64,000 nt of DNA, from NCBI GenBank assembly GCA_003598055.1, contig QZKI01000085.1, forward strand, positions 25,206 to 89,205, in the 5' to 3' direction. Both the position numbers and the translations under genes were made by a program. The notes beneath the pieces are model-generated. The model did no database searches, had not been told where the DNA came from, and was given only the letters and a program-made list of their open reading frames with translations. Position 1 is the stretch's first letter; the number at the start of each line of letters is the position of its first letter. Shown here piece by piece: positions 20,304 to 21,751 of this stretch. Source of the DNA: Candidatus Abyssobacteria bacterium SURF_17 (lineage in GTDB: Bacteria; Abyssobacteria; SURF-5).

Positions 20304-21751
20304 TGTCAAGGCGAAGCCATGTGCGCAATGATGTGGAGCAGTTTGAAACGGATGATCGACGTTACGTCTGGCACCCGTTCACGCAGATGCAGGATTACGA
20401 GGATGAGAGACCGCTCATTATTGAGCGCGCGAAAGGTGCGTATCTCTATGACGTGCGCGGAAAGAGATATCTGGACGGCGTGTCATCGCTGTGGGTGACC
20501 GTTCACGGTCACAGAAAGCGAGCGCTCGACGCGGCCATCCGTCAGCAACTGAGCAAGGTCGCGCACTCGACGCTGTTGGGCATATCGAATGTGCCGGCGG
20601 TCAAGCTCGCGAGGATGCTTGTCGAGCGCGCGCCAAAGGGTCTTGCGAAGGTCTTTTATTCCGACAATGGCTCGACTGCTGTGGAGGTCGGGCTCAAGAT
20701 GGCGTTCCAGTATTGGCAGCAGCATCGGAGCGGCCTTCATAAAGGGCGCACGAAGTTCGTCTGTTTCGAGAACGCCTACCATGGCGATACGATTGGGAGC
20801 GTGGGCATCGGCGGGATAGACCTTTTCCATAAGATGTATCGGCCGCTGCTCATGGATGCGATTCGCGTGCCGGCGCCGTATTGCTATCGTTGCCCGCAAT
20901 CACAACGTGGGGACAGACCCCGCGTTTTTGAAAGCGATAATTCAGGAAAGCAGAGATCGGAGCATGCAAAATATGGGGTCTGTCCCCACATGGTATGCCT
21001 CGAGGAGGTCGAGCGTGCGCTTGAGGCTCACGCCCATGAGGTGGCAGCACTCGTGATTGAGCCGCTTGTGTTTGCGGCGGGTGGGATCATCGTCCAGCCA
21101 CAGGGCTATCTGAGCCGCATCCGCGAGCTCTGCACGCGCTGCGGGATATTCATGATTGCGGATGAGGTGGCCGTGGGAGTTGGGCGAACAGGAACCCTGT
21201 TTGCCTGCGAGCATGAGGGCGTCACGCCTGATATCCTTGCAGTGGCGAAGGGCTTGAGCGGAGGTTACTTGCCCGTGGCGGCCACTCTCGCGACGCAAGA
21301 AATCTACGACGGATTTCTCGGTAGCTACGAGGAAGCCCGGGCGCTTTTTCACGGGCACACGTACACGGGGAATCCGCTCGCCTGTGCGGCTGCGGTGGCG
21401 AACCTGGAGATTTTTGACCGCGAGCGGACGCTGAAGAAGGTGCAGCAGAAAATCGAATTTCTCGCGGACTTGCTTCAACCCCTTGCGGAGTTGCCGCATG
21501 TGGGCGAGGTGAGGCAGCGCGGGTTGATGGTGGGAATCGAGCTGGTCAAAGACAAGAAATCTCGCGAGCCGTATGAATACGGTGAGAAGGTCGGCATAAA
21601 GGTCATCAAGGAGGCCAGGCGCCGGGGAATGATTATTCGGCCACTCGGCAACGTGATTGTGTTGATGCCACACCTCACACTCAGCCGCGCCCAGCTCGTC
21701 CGCATGGTGGATATAACCCGCGCATCAATCGAGGCCGTCACGCAGACCTAA
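20300..21751 (+). CDS. bioA: Adenosylmethionine-8-amino-7-oxononanoate aminotransferase carrying an in-frame repeat insertion
   Basis: [51 protein letters not shown]...; insertion codes [32 protein letters not shown]. Confidence 0.94.
20907..20989. repeat. Inverted-repeat element inside bioA
   Basis: GTGGGGACAGACCCC 20907-20921 and perfect reverse complement GGGGTCTGTCCCCAC 20975-20989. Confidence 0.85.

What the first reader, a model, noticed from the sequence alone, without database searches (positions are those of the whole stretch)
20907..20989. Palindromic element inserted in frame inside bioA
GTGGGGACAGACCCC...GGGGTCTGTCCCCAC (perfect 15-bp arms) lies in the BioA reading frame after CYRCP and adds about 27-30 residues ([28 protein letters not shown]) without a stop. 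Downstream PLP-enzyme motifs remain intact. This is a coding-sequence insertion of a repeat usually found between genes.
Basis: partly seen in the sequence, partly recalled or inferred. Interest (0 to 1): 0.65.

Follow-up and report, generated by a model that had tools for sequence, protein, structure and literature searches.

The report
Mobile palindrome inserted in-frame inside bioA
A small mobile DNA palindrome, of a kind normally parked between genes, sits in frame inside the biotin gene bioA and is read as about 28 extra amino acids; the same thing has happened in several other genes of this bacterial family, so it is a real, Rickettsia-like case of mobile DNA lengthening proteins.

Summary
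Confirmed. Window 20907-20989 is an 83-nt inverted repeat (two perfect 15-bp arms, 53-nt spacer) in one open frame inside a convincing bioA (TIGR00508, 524 bits). A relative of the same family (G002) has the short linker (11 residues; 33 here, net +22). The element belongs to a family of inverted doublets built on GGGGACAGASCCC / GGGSTCTGTCCCC: 11 exact-core copies in this genome (0 in reversed-pattern controls), 8 intergenic and 3 in frame inside genes (bioA, a glcF-like Fe-S protein, pgeF). In G002 the same kind of palindrome flanks an IS200-type (Y1/RAYT) transposase gene, and a small copy shares 31 exact nt with that transposon's end. Best reading: a REPIN/TIR-type miniature element mobilised by a RAYT/TIRYT transposase, surviving in genes only where it stays in frame in a tolerant loop. 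Sister genus G001 carries a different self-complementary palindrome at the same bioA site and another in frame in bioD; a rumen Clostridia MAG has the same palindrome in trmB. It works like Rickettsia palindromic elements and already described intragenic REP dimers: a new member of a known kind, with an unusual same-site palindrome in two genera. The effect on the protein is untested; models show only a low-confidence coil.

The parts
20300..21751 (+). bioA (adenosylmethionine-8-amino-7-oxononanoate transaminase), 483 aa, carrying the insert; D288 and K317 of the PLP-enzyme core lie in invariant alignment columns
   Evidence: TIGR00508 523.7 bits; PF00202 339 bits; invariant columns; fold match to B. 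subtilis BioA 3du4
20907..20989 (.). palindromic doublet (83 nt) read in frame as about 28 residues ([27 protein letters not shown])
   Evidence: inverted repeat; frame; absent from G002 BioA
20904..20926 (+). left half-unit; folds on its own into a small hairpin AACGTGGGG-ACAGA-CCCCGCGTT (core GGGGACAG fits the published TIRYT motif GGGGWSAS)
   Evidence: motif from PMC3733652
20974..20988 (-). right half-unit, inverted; folds on its own as TGGGG-TCTGT-CCCCA
20922..20974 (+). 53-nt spacer between the perfect arms, not conserved between copies
   Evidence: copies compared
19569..20303 (+). bioD just upstream, without insert here; the G001 orthologue carries a related palindrome in frame
   Evidence: TIGR00347

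Best explanation
The 83-nt sequence is a miniature, non-autonomous mobile element: two inverted copies of a small hairpin unit (core GGGGACAGACCCC) around a variable spacer, i.e. a REPIN / dimeric terminal-inverted-repeat element of the kind moved by IS200-type Y1 (RAYT/TIRYT) transposases. It landed in, and partly replaced, the linker of BioA between the CYRC motif and the following CxxxC-helix. It has no stop in that frame and lies in a length-variable loop, so the enzyme most likely still folds and the extra residues are carried as a neutral passenger. Shown: the palindrome, the frame, the dispersed family, the empty site in G002, the association with a Y1 transposase gene in G002. Inferred: that such a transposase put this copy here, that BioA remains active, and that the loop is surface-exposed and neutral.
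For: Family: 11 exact-core doublets in G000 and none with the reversed pattern; 32 single-arm matches with up to one mismatch against 0 in control. Empty site: G002 BioA reads CYRCPLELDKSTCDMACLE. Recurrence in frame in other genes of this genome: glcF-like CCG protein (C2:98993-99073) and pgeF/PF02578 (C25:680-757), with orthologues in G001/G002 lacking those sequences. Transposase link: in G002 the inverted pair GGGGACAGAGACCATATTT ... AAATATGGTCTCTGTCCCC flanks a 183-aa Y1_Tnp gene, and a small ~72-bp G002 copy is identical to that transposon's left end over 31 nt. Published TIRYT repeats share GGGGWSAS and form dimers (PMC3733652). REPIN architecture: each arm is itself a hairpin. Tolerance: catalytic columns intact; 191 synonymous-only against 105 amino-acid-changing codons between G000 and G001 bioA, third positions most diverged; AlphaFold2 model (pTM 0.72) has the BioA fold with residues 194-230 as low-confidence coil between a strand and a helix.
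Against: The only Y1 transposase found in the window's own genome (L072) is not flanked by this repeat; the association is shown only in G002, whose repeat differs (AGACC / GGTCT). No target-site signature was established, and about 5-6 ancestral codons are missing, so it is not a clean insertion. The structure model is weak in exactly the loop of interest. No expression or activity data.
Confidence: 0.83

Rival explanations
1. Old insertion shared by G000 and G001 (a rival to a recent, lineage-specific insertion, not to the mobile-element reading): the element entered bioA in their common ancestor; the two lineages then changed length and sequence while the arms stayed complementary, by template-switch correction of the quasi-palindrome or by selection on the hairpin.
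For: Same linker, same 3' distance to the conserved Cys and same reading phase in both (NRP...GVC / DRP...GVC); the ACAGACCCC core of the window copy is rare in its own genome, where ACAGAGCCC dominates.
Against: The outer arms are unrelated (GAAAAACAGG in G001, CAACGTGGGG here) and the G001 arms resemble those of the G001 bioD element (GGAAAATAGGGACAG), which fits two independent insertions into one permissive loop; spacer lengths differ (26 nt against 53 nt). The three bioA genes are about equally distant (77-78%), so the branching order is not resolved.
Confidence: 0.4
2. The longer linker has been selected: the element supplies a useful Cys (GVC) next to the CxxxC end of the loop, or the mRNA hairpin regulates bioA translation.
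For: Both palindromes are read in the frame that gives GVC just before the native Cys of a CxxC...CxxxC motif present in many BioA relatives; very stable hairpin (-40 kcal/mol).
Against: Inserts in glcF and pgeF use other frames and give unrelated residues, so there is no general coding benefit; several BioA homologues lack the Cys motif altogether.
Confidence: 0.1
3. Assembly or binning artefact of a metagenome-assembled genome.
For: Palindromes can cause assembly errors and the genome has 144 contigs.
Against: In-frame, stop-free palindromes occur independently in several genes and in two other assemblies (G001 bioA and bioD; Clostridia trmB); a simple assembly error would not keep the frame so often.
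Confidence: 0.03

Closest known systems
Intragenic REP dimers and TIRYT-associated TIR dimers (Di Nocera et al. 2013, PMC3733652)
   Same: Small palindromic units as inverted dimers; intragenic dimers encode 20-30 residues in unrelated genes; some TIRYT TIRs share the GGGGWSAS motif, matched here by GGGGACAG; association with Y1 transposase genes
   Different: The passages read describe intragenic GTAG and CGTC REPs; this unit is of the TIR (GGGGWSAS) type, in a poorly sampled lineage, with the same bioA loop hit in two genera
Rickettsia palindromic elements (RPE; reviewed in PMC10969869)
   Same: Palindromic mobile element inserted in frame in many unrelated genes, apparently tolerated by the protein
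   Different: About 150 bp with a conserved encoded peptide per element according to that review; here ~83 nt, variable spacer, different frames in different genes and no conserved peptide
REPINs of Pseudomonas (Bertels and Rainey 2011, PMC3116915)
   Same: Two inverted REPs with a variable spacer that fold into a hairpin, linked to RAYT transposases
   Different: There almost entirely extragenic (14 of about 1,067 core 16-mers overlap genes); here 3 of 11 doublets are in genes; copy number is tens rather than hundreds

Membership tests
REPIN (REP doublet forming a hairpin) | two inverted palindromic units separated by a spacer, forming a hairpin | tested here: met
REPIN (REP doublet forming a hairpin) | dispersed multi-copy family, mostly extragenic | tested here: met
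   11 doublets, 8 intergenic
REPIN (REP doublet forming a hairpin) | cognate RAYT gene flanked by the repeat in the same genome | tested here: not met
   the single Y1_Tnp hit in G000 (L072) lacks flanking repeats; met only in G002. Genome about 92% complete, so the absence is weak; hence 'works like a REPIN', not filed as one
TIRYT-associated TIR dimer | GGGGWSAS motif in the TIR | tested here: met
   GGGGACAG in both arms; motif. The motif is shared by some, not all, published TIRs
TIRYT-associated TIR dimer | TIRs flank a Y1 transposase gene | tested here: inconclusive
   met in relative G002; not seen in the window's own genome
TIRYT-associated TIR dimer | transposase shown to recognise the repeat | not testable with these tools
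   needs a binding/cleavage assay
Rickettsia palindromic element | in-frame palindromic insertion in unrelated genes | tested here: met
   bioA, glcF-like, pgeF
Rickettsia palindromic element | conserved peptide encoded by the family | tested here: not met
   different frames and residues in each gene

The most novel reading that the evidence does not exclude
The bioA loop is a recurrent or long-lived home for this palindrome class: two genera keep self-complementary but mutually diverged arms at the same codons (17-bp perfect arms in G001, 15-bp here), so either the transposase re-targets the site, or a palindrome inside a coding gene is kept symmetrical while its sequence changes.
Probability: 0.35. 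Interest if true: 0.65.

Novelty: new member of a known kind. Interest (0 to 1): 0.47.

Why it matters
In-frame spread of mobile palindromes through protein-coding genes is best known from Rickettsia; a 2024 review calls it conceivable in other prokaryotes (PMC10969869). Here is a well-resolved case with the empty site, several target genes, a candidate transposase in a relative, and a related palindrome at the same site in another genus, so how proteins tolerate such inserts and how palindromic arms evolve in coding DNA become directly testable.

Tried and rejected
Rfam: no family. AlphaFold2 with 5 sequences: mean pLDDT 54.5, uninformative; with 8 sequences the core is fair but the insert is below 50, so surface exposure is not proven. 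Conserved peptide encoded by the element: rejected, frames differ. G000's own Y1 transposase as source: no flanking repeats. Viral contigs with the long doublet pattern: none. Several one-mismatch hits (GGGGACTGTCCCC, GGGGTCTGTCTCC, GGGGTCTGACCCC types) were judged unrelated or chance because no partner arm was seen. A hairpin inside a 525-aa ORF (L178) has no Pfam support for that ORF and lies in a poorly alignable linker, so it was not counted among the in-gene cases. In one search the right arm was mistyped; corrected.

Full report
The observation. The two arms at 20907-20921 and 20975-20989 are perfect 15-bp inverted repeats separated by 53 nt. The frame of the ORF 20300-21748 runs through them without a stop, and the ORF is bioA by NCBIfam (TIGR00508, 523.7 bits), Pfam (PF00202) and fold (best match B. 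subtilis BioA 3du4). bioD lies directly upstream. In 30 simulated windows the longest perfect arm was 13 bp, and the 97-nt region folds far better than its shuffles (z -5.7).

Size of the insert. Aligned with homologues, the insert lies between the CYRC motif and the Cys that starts the following helix. Between CYRCP and CLEEVE the window has 33 residues, G002 (same family, another genus) 11, and most distant homologues about as many as G002. The net gain is therefore 22 residues although the palindrome spans about 28 codons: some ancestral linker was lost or can no longer be aligned. The loop also varies naturally; M. jannaschii BioA (6zhk) has a longer one than most. That agrees with a flexible loop but does not prove it.

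The family. In the window's own genome the single-arm pattern with one mismatch has 32 matches against 0 for the reversed control. A pattern for the whole doublet finds 11 elements with 0 controls: six with long spacers and five short hairpins. Eight are intergenic. Three are in frame inside genes: bioA; a 4Fe-4S/CCG protein like glcF (C2:98993-99073, residues LGDRAHVF...GENMGSVP); and pgeF (PF02578, C25:680-757, residues QGTEPISSSMGRPEGGTIWAQSPKGSVP). The orthologues in G001 and G002 lack these sequences, although here too the linkers differ beyond a clean insertion. All three in-gene copies are among the six long ones. The frames differ between genes (GGG GAC AGA in bioA and glcF at the left arm, but GTC TGT CCC against TCT GTC CCC at the right arm; GGA ACA GAA in pgeF), so there is no conserved peptide.

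Mechanism. Each arm is itself a small hairpin and the two are inverted, which is the REPIN layout (PMC3116915). In G002 the same type of unit, GGGGACAGAGACCATATTT, flanks in inverted orientation a 183-aa protein with the Y1/IS200 transposase domain, which carries an HVH motif (read from the sequence). A small G002 doublet is identical to the left end of that transposon over 31 nt. Published tyrosine-transposase genes that lack GTAG REPs are flanked by TIRs, some of which share GGGGWSAS, and many TIR repeats form dimers (PMC3733652); GGGGACAG fits. The likely history is therefore insertion of a miniature element moved by such a transposase, with survival in genes only where the frame stays open and the loop is tolerant. 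The insertion step and the transposase responsible in this genome are inferred: the one Y1 gene found in G000 is not flanked by the repeat.

The sister genus. G001 BioA has a shorter insert at the same place, NRPHSSEEKNGVCSC, whose DNA is a 17-bp perfect inverted repeat GAAAAACAGGAACAGAC / GTCTGTTCCTGTTTTTC. In a pattern search of that genome these two arms were the only exact matches. G001 bioD carries another in-frame palindrome, TCGGAAAATAGGGACAG / CTGTCCCTATTTTCCGA, absent from the window's bioD. The bioA arms of G000 and G001 differ from each other but each pair is self-complementary. Either each lineage's element entered the same permissive loop, or one old insertion kept its symmetry while its sequence changed. 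With three about equally distant genera this cannot be decided here.

Beyond the family. A scan of the 84,980-species genome collection for the exact arms at 30-60 nt spacing gave seven loci in unrelated groups. In one, a rumen Clostridia MAG (L068), several such units lie in frame inside trmB, between the N-terminal part and the methyltransferase domain. So the repeat class is widespread and in-frame hits recur.

What is known. In-frame palindromic insertions are classical in Rickettsia, and in-frame fusions by miniature elements are described for other bacteria (PMC10969869); intragenic REP dimers encoding 20-30 residues, with the proposal that they may be neutral because they sit in flexible linkers or loops, are reported in PMC3733652. 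This finding is a new member of that kind. Its less usual points are the TIR-type unit, the fairly complete evidence (empty site, several genes, transposase association in a relative) and the palindrome at the same codons in a second genus.

Limits.

Noticed in passing
L188 (G001:C204, glcF-like orthologue), DNA encoding PPFAKGGRGDL and LLPFASSKEAKERF: Other, unrelated palindromes in frame in the same gene of the sister genus: CCCCCCTTTcgcAAAGGGGGG and the perfect hairpin CTTTCGCCTCTT-caa-AAGAGGCGAAAG; absent from the orthologues in G000 and G002.
   Followed up: partly
L163:8399-9538 (-), G002:C31: A prophage prohead protease (PF04586) whose C-terminal part holds several copies of a related AATGGTGTCTGTCCCC repeat read in frame (GTDTILSRGARDFAP repeated).
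   Followed up: partly
window 45908-45972, 32524-32618, 19233-19289, 19115-19144, 14116-14191: Five other strong palindromes of different sequence families (TGTAGGGGCGAAC..., TGGGGTCAGACCTTGAAATATGACATA..., CGAGCGAAGCAATCTC, TGTAGGGGTCGTTCG, CTGTAGGTGCGAATT), all outside ORFs of 150 aa or more.
   Followed up: no
L010:1300-1500 (G001, bioD-bioA junction): The G001 bioA frame upstream of its likely Met is built of repeat-like DNA (ATGGGAACAGAGAGTT..., GCCCCCTTTGC...GCAAAGGGGGC), so repeats also fill the bioD-bioA junction.
   Followed up: no
BioA residues 195-198 and 228-233 (window about 20882-20999): Many BioA relatives share a CxxC...CxxxC pattern flanking this loop, suggestive of a metal site; other homologues lack all four Cys. 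The element changes the spacing and supplies one Cys.
   Followed up: no
L068:384-1364 (rumen Clostridia MAG): trmB with about 40 in-frame residues encoded by several copies of the same palindromic unit.
   Followed up: partly
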